This document shows, piece by piece, positions 46,141 through 53,590 of a DNA stretch of 64,000 bases. The notes beneath the pieces are model-generated. The model worked only from the letters and a program-made list of their open reading frames with translations, was not told the origin of the DNA and ran no database searches. The stretch lies in assembly GCA_017983795.1 (NCBI GenBank), contig JAGOAS010000013.1:46763-110762 (forward strand), given 5' to 3'. Positions within the stretch are counted from its first letter, which is position 1. Every line of letters begins with the position of its first letter. The position numbers and the translations under genes were made by a program. Source of the stretch: Piscinibacter sp. (GTDB lineage: Bacteria > Pseudomonadota > Gammaproteobacteria > Burkholderiales > Burkholderiaceae_C).

Positions 46141-48405
46141 TCACTGCGGACTTGGCCGATGTTGCGTTCGATCGCGCAGATCCCAAACAGCCTCCGTCTC
46201 GATCACCTCAATGAAGCGCTCTGCACTGAACCCGTCCGGATACAGAGTCCAGGCAGATCTGCTTGTATCGGCTTCACCCGACTGGTCTTCCCGGTAGTTC
46301 CCGGCGAGGAGACCTTCGGGGTCGTTCAAGAGGTGACGATCATCGCGAAGCGCGATCAACAGCTCTTCGACTGAGACCTTCAGAAAGCCGGCGAAGCGCT
46401 TGTGGTCGCACTCGATGGATGTGTCGGCGATCCAACCATGGTGGCGAGTTGGGGCACGATCCTCAGTCAAGTCGAGCAACGCACGAAGCTCGGGATCCGA
46501 GGCCATTGCCACCGAAACCGCTTCGACCTTGCGGCGAAGTTGCTGACCGGCCTTGCGAAGCGTCGTGGTGGAGTGCAGCCACGCGTCACGCTGCGATCGT
46601 CGCATGAACGTCGACTTCACCTCGATGACGAACAGATGCTGGCCAAGGGTGGCGATCAGGTCCACCTCGCCAGGGTCATCCAGGTCGCGCGGCGGCTTCC
46701 AATTGAGCAGCGTCTTGAATCCGCGCGTCTCCATAAGCCGAGCCAGACCGGCCTCGATCCGTCGCGCCTCGTCCCGAGCCTGCCCGCGCCGAGCGCCGAG
46801 CCGCCTCAGGTTGTTGATCGCCGCCGCGCTGTTGTTCTGCACTCCAACGACCCACGGCAACTGCACAAGCGACGCCCCGAACTTGAGGACCGGCCGCTCG
46901 AACAGGTGGGGCTGAAGACCGGGCTCATTGCGCTGAAGCCGCTCCGCTGTCGCGACCATGTCGTAGGTCCAGAAGTCCAGGATCGCGGATGCCATCCTTG
47001 GATTGCCCGCGGGCTCCGACTTCGTGACCGTCCACCCGGTGATGTTGGACACCTTCGAGTCTCGGCTCGACCAAGTGAGTGGCATTCGGTTCTGAAGCCC
47101 GTCGCGCAGACCGTCCATGGCCAGACGCTGCAACGCCACGATCCAGTCGCCCGACGCATCGACGCGTTCCGCAAAGGCGGCCAAGAAATCCCGCAGGAAG
47201 AAGGCGGACATCAGGTCGAGCGACAACAGCGCCCGGAAGAGATCGACCGTCTCTCCGGAGTCAGACGTCACTTCGTCGGCGACGCCGTACGCCTCACGCA
47301 GTCGAAGCTGCGCTTGCAGAGAGCGCAGCCAAGCCACGCGGTTGGCCTCGGCGTTCTCCGTTCGACCGATCATCCACGTGGCCGGATCGGCGGCCACCTG
47401 CTCGACGTAGGTGTCGACGGCACGGTGGAACCAGTACCCGTGCAGGCGCTCGAGCTTCAGCCCGTCGCGTTGCCACGCCGCCCTCGCCGCCGGATCGACT
47501 TCGACGATCTCCAGCCGATCGCCGCTCCGCTCGAAGCGAATGCCATCGTCGTAGCTGAACGCGTCGGCGGACCTGGAGATGAACTCGTTCAACTCGACCT
47601 GCGCGTCCATCAGCGCGTGAAAGGCGCTCAGATACCGAAAGGCCTCGCCCGTGCTGGTCGTGCCGGATTCGAAGAGGACCGGTCGAAGATGCCGCGCGAT
47701 CGACCTCCCGATGCTGTCGTCCGTCAGCTTCAGTGACGAGCCGCTGGCCCCTGCGAGCTTCCACGCGAGCAGATCGCTGAGTGCATCCCAAGCGACTTGG
47801 ACATCAGCCCCGGAACGCGGTGCGGGCAGTTTGCCGGTGAAGTCCTTCGGCACGAGCACTTCGAAGGCATAGAGGCTCGCGTAGATCAAGACGTCGAAGA
47901 CCGACAACCCCGCCAGCTGCGCCTTGTGCGCTTCCAGGGCCGCGACCCGTTCGCGATGCGCCCGGGCAAACAGGTCGAGCACACGGCACAACTCAGCCAC
48001 CGCTTCGCATTCGGACGCCGCCTGGTCCAACTCGGCTCGTCGTGGAGAGTTCGGGTTCAGAACGAGCCCGGAGTGCCTGACCGCGCGTATCAACGCCTCG
48101 GGCGCCTCGCGCGCGACCCGCGTCACCAATCGATCGGCAGTGACAGGCTCCTGCCCGAGGTAACGCGCCAGGGCGAGCGACATCGCTTCGGCCCCCCACG
48201 CGTCGGGCGGGCAGCACCTCACAACGTCGCTAGACCAGAAGAGGCCGTCGCGCTCCTTCTTCGTGAGCTTCTTCTTGCCAACCGGTGAAGGCTTTCCGTC
48301 AAGGTAGGCAGTCCCGACTCGCTCGACGGCGATCCGTTGCGAAACACCGTCCCCGATCAAGCGAACGAACAGGCCGTCATAGTAGTTCGTCGCGCGCTGA
48401 ACCAT
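46141..48405 (-). CDS. Large cargo protein with C-terminal PD-(D/E)XK nuclease-like domain
   Basis: This 754-residue protein matches no family I know over its first 550 residues, which are helical and soluble-looking. Near the C-terminus, E-A-G-L-A-R-L-M, then E-V-D-L-I-A (Asp 582), then V-I-E-V-K (Glu 595, Lys 597), and a later Q-Q-L-R-R helix match the order of a PD-(D/E)XK endonuclease core. This suggests metal-dependent DNA cleavage. It is last in the cargo operon, 38 bases after the membrane protein. GC is lower than in the chromosomal genes, indicating transfer. Confidence 0.75.
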   Translation of the reverse strand: MVQRATNYYDGLFVRLIGDGVSQRIAVERVGTAYLDGKPSPVGKKKLTKKERDGLFWSSDVVRCCPPDAWGAEAMSLALARYLGQEPVTADRLVTRVAREAPEALIRAVRHSGLVLNPNSPRRAELDQAASECEAVAELCRVLDLFARAHRERVAALEAHKAQLAGLSVFDVLIYASLYAFEVLVPKDFTGKLPAPRSGADVQVAWDALSDLLAWKLAGASGSSLKLTDDSIGRSIARHLRPVLFESGTTSTGEAFRYLSAFHALMDAQVELNEFISRSADAFSYDDGIRFERSGDRLEIVEVDPAARAAWQRDGLKLERLHGYWFHRAVDTYVEQVAADPATWMIGRTENAEANRVAWLRSLQAQLRLREAYGVADEVTSDSGETVDLFRALLSLDLMSAFFLRDFLAAFAERVDASGDWIVALQRLAMDGLRDGLQNRMPLTWSSRDSKVSNITGWTVTKSEPAGNPRMASAILDFWTYDMVATAERLQRNEPGLQPHLFERPVLKFGASLVQLPWVVGVQNNSAAAINNLRRLGARRGQARDEARRIEAGLARLMETRGFKTLLNWKPPRDLDDPGEVDLIATLGQHLFVIEVKSTFMRRSQRDAWLHSTTTLRKAGQQLRRKVEAVSVAMASDPELRALLDLTEDRAPTRHHGWIADTSIECDHKRFAGFLKVSVEELLIALRDDRHLLNDPEGLLAGNYREDQSGEADTSRSAWTLYPDGFSAERFIEVIETEAVWDLRDRTQHRPSPQ

Positions 48406-48443
48406 GATCGGATGACCGGCATCGGCAATTCATTGAGAGACGA

Positions 48444-49742
48444 TCATGGGGTCGTCGCCTCTTCTTTGCCGGGCTTCTCGAAGTTGGCTGGCACGCGCTG
48501 GAAGTACTTCTTCAGTGCCCAGCCAGTGCGATGCTCCTGGTAGAGCCAGTGGTAGTACTCGAACTCGATCCACTTGCCGCGTTCCGAGATCGGCCGGACC
48601 ACCTCTCGCGGCAGCAACTTGCCCTGAACGGCAGACCCGGGCTCCGGCTTGGACCGAACTATGGCCACGCGATCCAGAACGACGAAGCGCTCCTCCTGCC
48701 GTTTGGCTTCTTGCACCAAGGCCCTCTCCACCAACTTCGTGAGGGCATCGATCGTCTTTCGTTGCGCCTCCAGGTGGGTGCCAAGCGCCTCGATCCTCTC
48801 GGTCTGTCCCGCGAGCGTTCTGTCGGCCGCTGCCTGCCACTGTGAAGAGCTGAACTCTTGGTAAAGCGGGACCAGTACCGCGAGTATGAAACTCAGCAGT
48901 GTCATCAACTCCAAGGCCTTGCGGCTGAGACCGACACCGTCTTCTTGCTGAACAAACTGGACGTTGATTGACCCATCCGGGTTGATGCCCATCGCCGCAA
49001 GCTGCGCCTTGATGCCCTCCGGCCCAAGCACTTTCGCGAGCGTGGCGGCAGAGGCTGCATCCATGACGGGCAAGGACAGCCTGCCCATTTGCTCCTGCAG
49101 TGCCTGCAAGGGGCCGAGCGAGTCCAGCAAGGGCTGAGGAACGACCCAACGCTTGTTGGCCTCCTCGAAGCTCTTCATGAGCTGCCCGATACCACTACTG
49201 ACCGAGGCATCAGCAAGTATCTTGCGAGCACTCTCGATCGAGCCCTCTATGCTCGAATGCATGGCCTTCAGAAGGGCACTGGATCCCGTGGCTTGTTCCA
49301 CGAGCTTGGCCAACTGTCCCGACGCAGCAAGTGGTTTCGCGAGGTCCTCCAACATCCGCTGGGTCGCACTGTCCTTCAGAAGCGCATTGCGAATGTCTTG
49401 AAGAGGTTCGAGCATTTTTCTGATGCTCTCTTGTTCGGTCCTTTGCACCTCCTGCCATTGCTTCGCCATCTGGACAGCCAGCGAGTTCTCCGGGATGAGC
49501 AGCTTCATCTGTTCAGCGACGGAGTAGGCCTGCAGCTCCTTTGCCTGCTTACTCAGCTGGGCCGCAAGAGACGTGTCTCCCACCAGCTTCTTCATCTGCT
49601 CTGCGAGGCTGTGGCTCTGGGCAATGGCCGCCATCCAAGAGGCGCGCTCCAGTTCCAATCTGCGCAGTTCACCGGCCACACCGCTGGTCAGCAAGCCACC
49701 GATCTTGTCGAGTTCCAAGCTCTTCAGGGCGTCGCTCTGCAC
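48444..49742 (-). CDS. Coiled-coil membrane protein with C-terminal SH3-like domain
   Basis: This 432-residue protein starts from a GTG four bases after the protease stop; a longer open frame upstream would overlap the protease. Residues 1-240 are amphipathic heptad-like helices, including a repeated S-L/V-A-E-Q-M-K-x-L unit. One transmembrane helix lies at about residues 276-296 (L-L-S-F-I-L-A-V-L-V-P-L), followed by a second coiled coil and a bacterial SH3-like domain (about residues 365-425, with V-R-S-K-P and G-W-A-L-K-K-Y-F). I do not recognise the family. It looks like a sensor or membrane effector. Confidence 0.72.
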   Translation of the reverse strand: MQSDALKSLELDKIGGLLTSGVAGELRRLELERASWMAAIAQSHSLAEQMKKLVGDTSLAAQLSKQAKELQAYSVAEQMKLLIPENSLAVQMAKQWQEVQRTEQESIRKMLEPLQDIRNALLKDSATQRMLEDLAKPLAASGQLAKLVEQATGSSALLKAMHSSIEGSIESARKILADASVSSGIGQLMKSFEEANKRWVVPQPLLDSLGPLQALQEQMGRLSLPVMDAASAATLAKVLGPEGIKAQLAAMGINPDGSINVQFVQQEDGVGLSRKALELMTLLSFILAVLVPLYQEFSSSQWQAAADRTLAGQTERIEALGTHLEAQRKTIDALTKLVERALVQEAKRQEERFVVLDRVAIVRSKPEPGSAVQGKLLPREVVRPISERGKWIEFEYYHWLYQEHRTGWALKKYFQRVPANFEKPGKEEATTP

Positions 49743-49746
49743 GATT

Positions 49747-52236
49747 TCAGACCACGATGGCAACCTTGTTGGCGATGACGGCGTACAGGTCCACTTCGGT
49801 CTGCTCGGTGTGGATCGACACGACGAGGCTGTATCTCGCCGGAAGCGCGTAGCGTTCGAGCGCAGGTCGCGAACGCCACCAACCAGCCGATGGGTACACC
49901 GCGATGAATCCCCTGCTGGCCAAGTCTGCAGCGGTGCCTTGCCAGACATCGCGATGAAGCGACCCACGGTGACGCTGCCGCTCCCCCAGGTACCAATCCG
50001 TGTCCTTCGGGTTCGCCGCATCGCCTTCGTCTTCGCGCTGGGCGGCGGCGTTCACTCGTGCGATGAAGTCATCCGTCGACGCGTCGAGCGGCCGTTGGAC
50101 GTCGAACCTGAGGCGGTGCGACGGATAGTGGAACTTCGACGACACGCCTCTCGCCGAAGGGTTGGGCTCGACGAAGTAGGACAACGTGACATGCAACTGC
50201 ACCTCGGCATCGCCGAGCGCTTCCAGCTCTTCCTTTGGCCAAGGAAGTGCGTGCAAATTCATGTCGCGGCTGACGACGCCCCTCTTCTCGTCTTTGCCAT
50301 AGGGATGGACCTGGTCTTCGACCACCAACGTCAGCGAGTTGCCCGCGCTCCAGAGTGCCCGGTCGAGATCTGGCATGCCCCAGCCGCAGTGCCGGATGAG
50401 ATTGACATAGTCTTTCTTGGTCGGCTTGGCATTGGTGGGCAGATACATCTGCAGCATTGCGGGCGTCCACCTCGCGGAATGAACGATCAGCGCACGAACC
50501 GTCTCGGCACGCAGCTGCGGATAGGCCGCCATGATCTGTGCGGCCATGCGCGCACACAGCGCCGAGGCGGCGCTGGTGGCATTGGTCGTCGTGAACAGCC
50601 GCTCATTCGGTCGGTGGTTTGTCGTGAGCAGGTTCAGGCTCGACATCCCCACCGCACCTTGCTGGTCCTTGGCGACGTTGCCCCCTTCGAAGACAACGTC
50701 GGGCTTGTGGGGCCACGCGGGGTCCCAGGTCCTAGACGTGGTGGTGTAGGGGCTCAAGCCGCCATCAGGTGCAATCGCGACCAACGAATCATGTTCGGTG
50801 TCGACCTTGTTCGTGCAGGCGCCCACGGTGATCGCATTCCATGCCTGACCCGGGTCGTGCACGAGGTTGGTCGACAGGCTGTCCGGATACTTCGCCCATG
50901 CATCGTGATCCCGAGTGTTCCCGGCGGCGAGTATGAATAGCCGCGGGTACTGACCGACGTTGTCGACATCGGCGGCCATCCGATCGATCATCGAAGACCA
51001 CGACGACGGGCGACCGCGGTCGCGGTAGTCAGAGGCGGTAACTGCGGATGCGAAAACCCGTCGCCGATCTGCAGCCGTGACCTCCGGTCGGCTGACCGCC
51101 TCGGCGAACAGATAGGCGTGGTGTTTGCTGTCGCCTTCGTTCGACCCCTCGTCTGGCGTCAGCTTGACCGATTCGAGCCGGTGCGCGACCTGCACCACAT
51201 CGGTCTCGCCCAGGACGTGCGTCAAGTCTCCATAGGCGGCAAGGCCTGCCAAGCCAGTGCCATGGTTCGCCGTGTCGTCGACTCCCCACGCGGGATTCAC
51301 CGAGTGCAGATCTGGCTCGGCGAGCAAGGGCTCAAGTAGTGGGTGGCCTCGATTGACGCCCGTGTCGAGGAAGCAGACGTGCGGCGCGTCCGTTCCCTCT
51401 GGGGCAAACTGAGCTTGCGCCAGCATGTCGTTCATCCACAGCCCCTGCTCCTCGACACCCATCGCATCGAAGAACTCGGCGGTGTCCTTGGCGCGGCGCA
51501 GTTCGGCAACACAGTTCAGCAGCATCACAGACTGTGTGAACTGACCCTGCGACCCGTACATCAGCAGGACGGTCCGTTCGGGGAACTCGGCTTGGTGTTC
51601 GCTGACGGCACAGCCCGCCAGTTGGGCGAGCTTTCTGAAATCTGAGACCACGGCCTGCCGGGCTGATCGCACCGGCAACCAGACCTCCCACCAGAACGCC
51701 TCATCTGGATTCTCTGGCAGTAGACCTGGATCGTCGGTCCAGAGAGCACGCAGCTCGGCGACGCGGATCGACGCGATCGTGTTCAGCAAGGCCTTGTGAT
51801 CCAGCGCCTGCCCATTCTTGCCCTTCTTTTCCTCCAAGTAGTCGGCGACGTAGCGCTCGAAATGACCGAGCCCTCCATCCGGTACGAACACATTGGCGTA
51901 GGTGACATCACCCTCTCTCCGTACGCTCAGCAGTTCGATCTTCTTCCGATCGTCAGCGAGGCTCTGGAAAGCCAGCTCTACATCGGGTTGACCGACGAAC
52001 TCAATCTGCAGGCCGAGTCCGCTCTCGAGCGCAAGCTCACGCTGAGACGCAGCCGCGGTGTCCGCTGCCGTCTCCAACTCTTGCAGCTGCCCCCGCAGGG
52101 CCTGCCCGTGCGCCTGGCGATCGCGCTCAGGTAGCTTCTTCTTTCTGCCGCCCGGACTGTGCGCAGTGAAGGCGTGCGGTTGCGACGTGCCGTGAAGGAG
52201 AAGGTGCGCGCGCTTATCGGCTGCTGGATCCGGCAT
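49747..52236 (-). CDS. Subtilisin-like (S8) serine protease of the cargo operon
   Basis: This 829-residue protein has an S8 catalytic domain in the middle: Asp 291 in F-L-D-T-G-V, His 325 in N-H-G-T-G-L-A-G, oxyanion Asn in L-A-A-G-N-T, and Ser 555 in A-T-S-A-A-S. There is no signal peptide, so it probably acts in the cytoplasm. The N-terminal 280 residues and C-terminal 200 residues are family-specific and may recognise substrate or partners. Its start overlaps the AAA+ ATPase gene by 23 bases, indicating coupled expression. Confidence 0.88.
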   Translation of the reverse strand: MPDPAADKRAHLLLHGTSQPHAFTAHSPGGRKKKLPERDRQAHGQALRGQLQELETAADTAAASQRELALESGLGLQIEFVGQPDVELAFQSLADDRKKIELLSVRREGDVTYANVFVPDGGLGHFERYVADYLEEKKGKNGQALDHKALLNTIASIRVAELRALWTDDPGLLPENPDEAFWWEVWLPVRSARQAVVSDFRKLAQLAGCAVSEHQAEFPERTVLLMYGSQGQFTQSVMLLNCVAELRRAKDTAEFFDAMGVEEQGLWMNDMLAQAQFAPEGTDAPHVCFLDTGVNRGHPLLEPLLAEPDLHSVNPAWGVDDTANHGTGLAGLAAYGDLTHVLGETDVVQVAHRLESVKLTPDEGSNEGDSKHHAYLFAEAVSRPEVTAADRRRVFASAVTASDYRDRGRPSSWSSMIDRMAADVDNVGQYPRLFILAAGNTRDHDAWAKYPDSLSTNLVHDPGQAWNAITVGACTNKVDTEHDSLVAIAPDGGLSPYTTTSRTWDPAWPHKPDVVFEGGNVAKDQQGAVGMSSLNLLTTNHRPNERLFTTTNATSAASALCARMAAQIMAAYPQLRAETVRALIVHSARWTPAMLQMYLPTNAKPTKKDYVNLIRHCGWGMPDLDRALWSAGNSLTLVVEDQVHPYGKDEKRGVVSRDMNLHALPWPKEELEALGDAEVQLHVTLSYFVEPNPSARGVSSKFHYPSHRLRFDVQRPLDASTDDFIARVNAAAQREDEGDAANPKDTDWYLGERQRHRGSLHRDVWQGTAADLASRGFIAVYPSAGWWRSRPALERYALPARYSLVVSIHTEQTEVDLYAVIANKVAIVV

Positions 52237-53242
52237 GGTTCACTGGCTTGTTGTTCTTTTCCAGCTTCTCACTCAACCTGCGACGCTCCAGGAGCGCCCG
52301 GCCGAGAGCATCCGCATCCACTCGCCCTCCTTCATGCATGACGACCTCCTTGATGGACTCGTCGACGGCACGGCGAATCTCCGCGAAGCTCAGACCGACA
52401 GTCTTCGCCGCCAACGCCTTGGCCGGCAATGGCTTTGGCGCGTAGGTGCCGAGACGAGACCGGATGAGAGCCATGGCCTGCTCTGGCGTCGGCAGGTGGT
52501 ACTCGATGACATCGTCGAAACGACGGAACAACGCGTAGTCCAGGATCTCCGGGTGATTCGTGGCCGCCAGGATCAGGCTCGTCGACTGGTCGCGCTCGAT
52601 CATCTGCAGGAAGCTATTGAGCACGCGTCGAATCTCGCCGACGTCGTTGGCCAATCCACGCTGTGATCCGATGGCGTCGAACTCGTCGAAGAAATAGACC
52701 CCGCGCACATCCGAGACGGCATCGAAGACCTGTCGCAGCTTCGCTGCAGTCTCGCCCATGAACTTGGTGATCAATGAATCCAAACGCACCAGGAACAGCG
52801 GAACCCCGAGCTCACCAGCCAATACGGCGGCTGTCATCGTCTTGCCGGTTCCCGGCGGACCCACGAGCAGAATCTTCCGTCGCGGTGAAAGTCCGTGCTC
52901 GCGAATACGCGCATGCAGTCGCTGCTCCTTCATGATTCGCTGCAACTGCTCGAAGACCGTCGGATCGAGCACCATGTCGGCCAGGCGATTCTTGGGATAG
53001 CTGACGTCCAGCAAGTTGGCCAGTTCGCCACGCGGCCGTGCCAACGGGACGAGCTTTCCAGGCTCGCTTGAGATGCTGCGCGTCTTGGCGGCATCGATCA
53101 TGTCGCGCAGCTCTTCGGCGAGCTTGCCGTGGCCAGCCTTCGCTTCATGCGCAGCGACCTGCATGGCGACGGAATAGAACTGGTTGTCGTCCCGACTGAT
53201 ATGGGACTTGACCAGTGCCTTCAGTTGATCCGCGCTAGCCAT
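52214..53242 (-). CDS. AAA+ ATPase partner of the S8 protease
   Basis: This 342-residue single-module AAA+ protein resembles FtsH/Vps4-type ATPases. It has Walker A G-P-P-G-T-G-K-T (Lys 134), Walker B F-F-D-E-F-D (Glu 187), sensor-1 A-A-T-N-H-P-E and an arginine-finger region R-R-F-D-D. The N-terminal 90 residues are helical and could bind partners. It has no protease domain of its own. Being immediately upstream of and overlapping the subtilisin gene, it probably unfolds or delivers substrates to it, or gates its activity. Confidence 0.9.
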   Translation of the reverse strand: MASADQLKALVKSHISRDDNQFYSVAMQVAAHEAKAGHGKLAEELRDMIDAAKTRSISSEPGKLVPLARPRGELANLLDVSYPKNRLADMVLDPTVFEQLQRIMKEQRLHARIREHGLSPRRKILLVGPPGTGKTMTAAVLAGELGVPLFLVRLDSLITKFMGETAAKLRQVFDAVSDVRGVYFFDEFDAIGSQRGLANDVGEIRRVLNSFLQMIERDQSTSLILAATNHPEILDYALFRRFDDVIEYHLPTPEQAMALIRSRLGTYAPKPLPAKALAAKTVGLSFAEIRRAVDESIKEVVMHEGGRVDADALGRALLERRRLSEKLEKNNKPVNHAGSSSR

Positions 53243-53284
53243 CTCTACCCTCCGCTCCCGCGATACCGATGGCCGAAAGACCCC

Positions 53285-53590
53285 TCAGCCACGGACCGCC
53301 CCCGCGTCGTTCGCCGAGAGAATCGATGACATGGCCGCGCGCTGCAGTCTCCCGGCCAGCCGACTATCGATGTTCCCCAACTCCTTCTCTTCAGATGCCA
53401 TCACGAAGAGCGCTCCAACAGGCACATGAAGCGCCTCGGCGATCTTCGTGATCATCGACAACGTCGGGTCGCGCTTGTTGTTCTCCAGCATCGACAGGTA
53501 CGACACCGAGCAATCGGCGCGAACCGCTACGTCGGTCTGAGACACGCCGCGCCGCTTCCGACACAGGCGAATAGCATTTCCCACGTCCAT
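53285..53590 (-). CDS. XRE-family helix-turn-helix regulator
   Basis: This 101-residue protein has an N-terminal Cro/C1-type HTH (about residues 6-60, with R-R-G-V-S-Q-T-D-V-A and V-S-Y-L-S-M-L-E-N-N-K-R-D-P-T) and a 40-residue C-terminal tail. It is the first gene of the cargo operon, 42 bases before the ATPase, so it likely represses that operon. Such regulators often lead defence operons on ICEs. Confidence 0.92.
   Translation of the reverse strand: MDVGNAIRLCRKRRGVSQTDVAVRADCSVSYLSMLENNKRDPTLSMITKIAEALHVPVGALFVMASEEKELGNIDSRLAGRLQRAAMSSILSANDAGAVRG

What the first reader, a model, noticed from the sequence alone, without database searches (positions are those of the whole stretch)
46141..53590. 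Five-gene ICE cargo operon: XRE, AAA+ ATPase, S8 protease, coiled-coil membrane/SH3 protein, PD-(D/E)XK protein
Five same-strand genes (XRE regulator, AAA+ ATPase, subtilisin, membrane coiled-coil/SH3 protein, nuclease-like protein) are spaced by 4-42 bases, with one overlap. They fill the slot between the att site and the transfer genes, where ICEs often carry defence cargo. GC is visibly lower than in the neighbours. An ATPase-controlled cytoplasmic protease plus a membrane protein and a nuclease suggests a regulated abortive or anti-phage system. ATPase-S8 pairs occur in mobile elements, but I know of no characterised system with this full set.
Basis: partly seen in the sequence, partly recalled or inferred. 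Interest (0 to 1): 0.88.

Follow-up and report, generated by a model that had tools for sequence, protein, structure and literature searches.

The report
Iet defence locus with guest genes
This mobile-element locus is a diverged form of a known ATPase-protease anti-phage system (Iet) with two extra genes, one of which codes for an uncharacterised membrane protein whose relatives also sit inside unrelated phage-defence operons.

Summary
The five same-strand genes are real, but not one unknown system. The first three (XRE, AAA+ ATPase, S8 protease) are a diverged Iet locus: PADLOC Iet models match almost end to end, though NCBIfam's strict Iet cut-offs are not reached. In 13 other Iet loci examined, IetA lies next to IetS and the last two genes are not seen nearby. 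Those two are add-ons: the order IetS - coiled-coil/SH3 protein ("ccSH3") - nuclease recurs on one further contig (L042; 86% DNA identity over 2,760 bases, dN/dS 0.05-0.23), and one genome keeps a ccSH3 remnant before the nuclease. The new part is ccSH3: of 14 further loci with a substantial relative, one is L042, eight lie within BREX, type I or type III restriction loci, and five have weak or no defence context. All match Pfam SH3_3 and have a hydrophobic segment; no PADLOC model matches. The nuclease family keeps its PD-(D/E)XK residues and on one plasmid lies just upstream of a BREX operon. Most likely: an Iet system extended by a membrane-bound accessory and a nuclease effector. The mechanism is inferred, not shown.

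The parts
53285..53590 (-). XRE/HTH_3 regulator, 101 aa
   Evidence: Pfam HTH_3 4.5e-15; PADLOC HTH_VI 6.7e-25; relatives directly before IetA in L010 and L011
52214..53242 (-). IetA-type AAA+ ATPase, 342 aa
   Evidence: Pfam AAA 5.2e-30; PADLOC IetA 1.8e-76 over residues 3-328; NCBIfam IteA 211.7 bits against a cut-off of 510; Walker A and B motifs
49747..52236 (-). IetS-type S8 (subtilisin) protease, 829 aa; motifs with D291, H325, S555
   Evidence: Pfam Peptidase_S8 2.2e-52; PADLOC IetS 4.4e-41 over residues 37-825; NCBIfam IteS 87.7 bits against a cut-off of 900; motifs
48444..49742 (-). ccSH3: N-terminal part that looks coiled-coil (by eye), hydrophobic segment (276-294), C-terminal bacterial SH3 domain; 432 aa from GTG
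   Evidence: SH3_3 22.4 bits, below the gathering score of 27, but 15 of 15 family members match at E up to 0.01; hydrophobic segment; relatives inside BREX and R-M loci
46141..48405 (-). NERD/PD-(D/E)XK-like protein, 754 aa; D582, E595, K597
   Evidence: PADLOC NERD 1.9e-17; Pfam NERD and UPF0102, both below gathering; motif invariant in 7 of 7 aligned rows, the window's included

Best explanation
A diverged Iet anti-phage locus (XRE regulator, IetA, IetS) carried beside conjugation genes and extended by two accessory genes. Inferred working: the XRE protein sets expression; IetA, as an AAA+ ring, senses infection or unfolds substrates and controls the cytoplasmic subtilisin IetS, which cuts host or phage proteins. 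ccSH3 is a membrane-anchored accessory that couples the system to the cell envelope or guards it against phage inhibitors. The nuclease is a second effector acting on DNA. Shown: gene order, families, intact catalytic motifs, low dN/dS, conserved order on one other contig, recurrence of ccSH3 inside other defence operons. Everything about activity, trigger, topology and substrate is inference. The confidence is for 'diverged Iet locus with add-on genes'; that the add-ons work together with Iet is nearer 0.5, and the rivals below overlap with this reading.
For: Iet models match IetA and IetS over almost the whole proteins. IetA beside IetS in 13 of 13 other loci examined. XRE relatives before IetA in 2 of 13. 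IetS(94%)-ccSH3(83%)-nuclease(80%, cut) in the same order on L042, 86% DNA identity over 2,760 bases and dN/dS 0.05, 0.23, 0.23. ccSH3 remnant directly before the nuclease in G822. ccSH3 inside BREX, type I and type III R-M loci. Nuclease relative directly before a BREX operon.
Against: NCBIfam equivalog cut-offs for Iet are not met. In 13 of 13 Iet loci found through IetS the last two genes are not seen in the stretches held, so Iet does not need them; L042, the one that has them, was found through ccSH3. XRE was not detected in 11 of 13. L042 is a 3.1-kb contig of a MAG labelled Planctomycetota, cut at both ends, possibly misbinned, and close to the window: one event, not broad co-inheritance. 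ccSH3 has no known activity, flanking charges do not settle its orientation, and no structure could be predicted.
Confidence: 0.72

Rival explanations
1. Two or three independent defence cargoes stacked by chance in one slot of the element: an Iet system, a stand-alone nuclease and a stand-alone ccSH3 gene, perhaps co-transcribed but not functionally coupled.
For: Each module is found alone elsewhere, within the stretches held: Iet without the two genes (13 of 13 loci), nuclease without Iet or ccSH3 (7 of 7 plasmid loci fetched, two of them cut near the gene by the record's end), ccSH3 without Iet or nuclease in 13 of 14 loci (two of them cut close upstream).
Against: IetS-ccSH3-nuclease order is kept at 86% DNA identity on L042; ccSH3-nuclease junction traced in G822; in 9 of 14 loci ccSH3 lies inside a recognised defence operon, not merely near one.
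Confidence: 0.35
2. ccSH3 is a guard or back-up module in the manner of PrrC: silent while the neighbouring system is intact, and triggered at the membrane when a phage inhibitor blocks it.
For: Type I R-M and BREX are targets of phage anti-restriction proteins (PMC2610378, passages; PMC12839542, section 35 part 1). An OLD/AriA-like ATPase gene (L044) and genes I read by eye as AlbA/Schlafen-like (L043, L047; PADLOC gave only weak pAgo-associated matches) share ccSH3-bearing loci, and such genes are called back-up effectors in that census.
Against: No catalytic residues or toxic domain recognised in ccSH3; Iet is not a DNA-modifying system; no phage inhibitor of Iet is known to me (recall).
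Confidence: 0.25
3. A toxin-antitoxin or element-maintenance operon rather than phage defence.
For: XRE-led gene run on a mobile element; protease and nuclease could be toxic; nuclease relatives lie on plasmids with toxin-antitoxin genes nearby (L003, L004).
Against: Iet models and the defence-locus context of the modules; no small antitoxin-like partner recognised besides XRE.
Confidence: 0.1

Closest known systems
Iet (IetA-IetS) anti-phage system (PADLOC IetA/IetS, NCBIfam IteA/IteS; Gao et al. 2020 recalled, not read)
   Same: Adjacent AAA+ ATPase and S8 protease genes with overlapping ends, near full-length PADLOC matches, intact motifs
   Different: Below NCBIfam equivalog cut-offs; has an XRE gene before and two extra genes after
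Auxiliary nucleases embedded in BREX loci (PMC12839542; section 35 part 1 of 2 read; passages)
   Same: Guest genes between or beside core genes of a defence operon; PD-(D/E)XK, Schlafen and OLD guests are listed there
   Different: The census main text has no occurrence of 'SH3' or 'transmembrane'; ccSH3 shows no nuclease domain
PrrC / RloC genes linked to type I and III restriction loci (PMC2610378, passages)
   Same: Accessory genes linked to R-M loci; PrrC is activated when the R-M enzyme is inhibited
   Different: PrrC and RloC are ATPase-tRNases; neither domain was found in ccSH3
Viperin-associated NERD (PADLOC PDLC02906)
   Same: C-terminal residues 541-741 of the nuclease-like protein match the profile's C-terminal part
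   Different: The first 540 residues are unmatched; no viperin-like gene among the five

Membership tests
Iet | AAA+ ATPase gene directly followed by an S8 protease gene | tested here: met
   overlap of 23 bases
Iet | Match to PADLOC IetA and IetS models over most of the protein | tested here: met
   IetA 1.8e-76, residues 3-328; IetS 4.4e-41, residues 37-825
Iet | NCBIfam equivalog cut-offs for IteA and IteS | tested here: not met
   211.7 against 510 and 87.7 against 900 bits; so 'diverged Iet', not the equivalog
Iet | Intact Walker A/B and Asp-His-Ser motifs | tested here: met
   Motif positions; residue roles from knowledge of the families
Iet | Protects against phage | not testable with these tools
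   Needs expression and phage challenge
BREX or R-M accessory gene (ccSH3) | Lies inside loci of those systems in other genomes | tested here: met
   8 of 14 further loci (L043, L044, L053 BREX; L047, L050, L051, L052 type I; L048 type III)
BREX or R-M accessory gene (ccSH3) | Required for or affecting the host system | not testable with these tools
   No functional data
PD-(D/E)XK nuclease (NERD-like) | Conserved D...ExK residues | tested here: met
   D582, E595, K597 invariant in 7 of 7 rows; Pfam NERD itself below gathering
PrrC-type guard | ATPase plus anticodon-nuclease domain | tested here: not met
   ccSH3 members match SH3 models and scattered single-member models only

The most novel reading that the evidence does not exclude
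ccSH3 defines an unrecognised, portable membrane-anchored accessory family shared by unrelated defence systems (Iet, BREX, type I and type III restriction). A cytoplasmic coiled-coil part docks onto whichever system it travels with, and an SH3 domain outside the membrane ties it to the envelope. Cytoplasmic anti-phage machines would thus be held where phage DNA enters, or told of envelope damage.
Probability: 0.3. Interest if true: 0.85.

Novelty: new variant of a known kind. Interest (0 to 1): 0.58.

Why it matters
The Iet core is known, but the guest gene points to a layer that I did not find in the texts searched: one membrane protein family inserted in mechanistically unrelated defence operons. 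If it is a shared anchor, sensor or guard, the question of where in the cell BREX, restriction and Iet act could be tested with one protein, and defence loci could be found by their guest rather than by their core.

Tried and rejected
Rejected: 'uncharacterised five-gene system' (core is Iet; the set is not widely co-inherited). Rejected: nuclease as part of a viperin system (only its C-terminal part matches that model; no viperin-like gene among the five). Rejected as chance: influenza matrix protein and coiled-coil chains matched by the ccSH3 profile, GerD and other models matched by single members. Led nowhere: ccSH3 single-sequence scan of viral contigs (0 relatives among 22 candidate stretches), ccSH3 in 72,556 plasmid records (0), Rfam scan of 43000-64000 (0), promoter and terminator scan (1 and 5 found; 1.0 and 5.5 expected), repeats in the locus, scan of 8 genomes of the genus for the left flank (besides the window's own locus only matches under 70 bases), solved structures for the nuclease profile (one weak match, E 0.093) and for IetS (none), papers on IetA/IetS (4 listed, none read) and on Iet with S8 peptidase (0).
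Full report
Observation. Five - strand ORFs at 46141-53590 were confirmed. The spacings are 42, -23, 4 and 38 bases. The fourth gene's longest ORF starts inside IetS; GTG 49742 agrees with the starts of relatives. Gene GC is 0.60-0.64 and GC3 0.76-0.79, with six of seven other ORFs at 0.83-0.90 and one (probably not a gene frame) at 0.42; sliding windows show the same dip. On the right lie a TraD coupling protein of the TOL/SXT type and a weaker TIGR03747-like protein, which fits an ICE. The contig ends at the window's right end, so the att sites could not be tested.

The core is Iet. The ATPase matches PADLOC IetA (1.8e-76, residues 3-328) and the protease IetS (4.4e-41, residues 37-825). NCBIfam's anti-phage IteA and IteS models are the best NCBIfam hits of the two proteins but stay below their equivalog cut-offs (211.7 of 510; 87.7 of 900), so this is a diverged Iet. 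The catalytic motifs are intact. IetS relatives (E up to 1e-5) occur in 487 of 72,556 plasmid records and 2 of 50,697 phage records, and (E up to 1e-20) in 8 of 398 other genomes of the order. I fetched 5 of the 487 plasmid loci and all 8 genome loci. IetA lies next to IetS in 13 of 13, an XRE relative is detected before it in 2 of 13 (L010, L011), and ccSH3 or the nuclease is detected in 0 of 13 within the 15-22 kb held.

The last two genes are add-ons, but not a one-off. On contig L042 (JADZDL010000258.1, 3,112 bases), which was found through ccSH3 and is not among the 13, IetS (94% identical), ccSH3 (83%) and the nuclease (80%, cut by the contig end) follow in the same order. DNA identity is 86% over 2,760 bases, and dN/dS is 0.05, 0.23 and 0.23, which points to purifying selection on all three. 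The contig comes from a MAG labelled Planctomycetota and may be misbinned. In genome G822 the last 35 residues of a ccSH3 (86% identical) lie directly before the nuclease's start, with efflux-type genes (read by eye, not searched) in place of the rest, and IetS was not found in that genome. The nuclease is split there between two contig ends; its pieces were compared apart and have dN/dS 0.26 and 0.22.

ccSH3 is the most interesting part. L055 holds only a 26-residue match and was dropped, leaving 14 loci with a substantial relative besides the window. In those searches ccSH3 is rare: 3 of 398 other genomes of the order with the single sequence, 4 of 368 of the class with the profile. The class hits include the G822 remnant and two distant short relatives (L073, L074) whose neighbours were not scanned against PADLOC and look unremarkable; these are outside the 14.

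PADLOC scans of neighbours place the 14 as follows. BREX: L044 (BrxC, PglX, ccSH3, OLD-like ATPase, two further genes, PglZ), L053 (PglX end, ccSH3, two genes, PglZ, BrxL), L043 (ccSH3, a gene I read as AlbA/Schlafen-like, PglZ, BrxL; upstream cut off). Type I restriction: L050 and L052 (HsdM, HsdS, ccSH3, HsdR), L051 (HsdS, ccSH3, a short transposase-like gene, HsdR), L047 (HsdS, a further gene, a HamB-like helicase, ccSH3, an AlbA-like gene, HsdR). Type III: L048 (Mod, Res, ccSH3). Iet: L042, by similarity to the window's IetS. That is 9 of 14 inside a recognised defence operon. The other five: L049 (next to a gene with a weak PDC-S36 match, behind a helicase with a ZorD match of 1.1e-19), L045 (a SIR2 gene with a PDC-S25 match 0.9 kb downstream, a resolvase-like gene between), L046 (behind an SNase-like gene and a kinase gene with weak matches), L056 (behind an SNase-like gene; downstream neighbour without a match), L054 (neighbours not scanned). 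As a rough control, 1 of 8 genes that I picked from the window's 1-43 kb matched PADLOC at the same threshold, a protein with two ATPase regions that is probably housekeeping; this control is small and not matched.

All 15 ccSH3 members, the window's included, match Pfam SH3_3 (E up to 0.01), though the window's own score is below gathering. The strongest hydrophobic segment lies at a similar place in all 15 (best 19-residue mean hydropathy 1.41-2.15; 13 of 15 above 1.6), but flanking charges give only a weak hint of orientation. That the N-terminal part is coiled-coil is judged by eye. No PADLOC model matches any of the 15, and no NCBIfam model except a chance-like GerD match in one. In a tree of the 15, five rows (three type I, L049, L054) form one clade (100/100), the three BREX cases another (98/98), and the two Iet cases group with L045 (93/98). 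The type III case and the fourth type I case (L047) lie with the BREX and Iet rows on the other side, so the gene has probably changed host systems more than once; only 3 of 12 inner branches are strongly supported.

The nuclease. D582, E595 and K597 are invariant in 7 of 7 aligned rows. Relatives occur in 8 of 72,556 plasmid records; 7 were fetched and in none is Iet or ccSH3 detected nearby, two of them being cut near the gene. Surroundings of three that were scanned: directly before WYL, BrxA, one unscanned gene, BrxC and PglX (L005), after a PD-Lambda-1 gene (L004), in an island with LmuB-like and PDC-S06 genes (L008). The other four lie among transposase, toxin-antitoxin, resistance or unnamed genes. 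Two viral contigs also hold it. It is rare: 1 of 148 other genomes in the relatives set (a 55-residue match with a stop inside) and 1 of 368 in the class set.

Print. The BREX census PMC12839542 has no occurrence of 'SH3' or 'transmembrane' in its main text; section 35, of which I read part 1 of 2, lists nuclease guests including PD-(D/E)XK, OLD and Schlafen. PrrC/RloC (PMC2610378, passages) are the precedent for guards linked to R-M loci. Searches for BREX with SH3, for embedded accessory membrane genes, for SH3 with anti-phage terms and for SH3 with type I loci (10 of 17 papers shown) listed no paper whose title or abstract start speaks of such a protein; bodies were not read, so this is weak evidence of absence, and only open-licence papers are held. 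Gao et al. 2020 is recalled, not read.

Mechanism. Best reading: an Iet system whose protease is gated by the ATPase, with a membrane-bound accessory and a nuclease as added layers. The alternative of independent cargoes stacked in one slot is not excluded, because each module also lives alone; I give it 0.35.

Noticed in passing
L047:4615-16233: A type I restriction-like locus combining HsdS, a HamB-like (PDC-M23B) helicase, ccSH3, an AlbA-like gene and HsdR.
   Followed up: partly
L044:2795-17906: BREX locus in a Methylophilus MAG with ccSH3, an OLD/AriA-like ATPase, a 462-aa gene without a PADLOC match and a gene I read as Fic-like, all between PglX and PglZ.
   Followed up: partly
L005:9866-21536: A nuclease relative lies directly upstream of a WYL-BrxA-BrxC-PglX BREX operon on a Pseudomonas veronii plasmid.
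   Followed up: partly
L046:9157-9780 and L056:9266-9751: A gene I read as an exported thermonuclease (SNase-like) sits just upstream of ccSH3 in two loci; a similar gene lies some kilobases away in L052 (15254-15760).
   Followed up: no
L073:4384-5211 and L074:1026-1943: Shorter, very distant ccSH3-like proteins (275 and 305 aa) that match only the hydrophobic-segment and SH3 end.
   Followed up: no
L070:226-2260: In G822 efflux-pump-like genes abut a ccSH3 remnant, as if they had replaced an older defence locus.
   Followed up: partly
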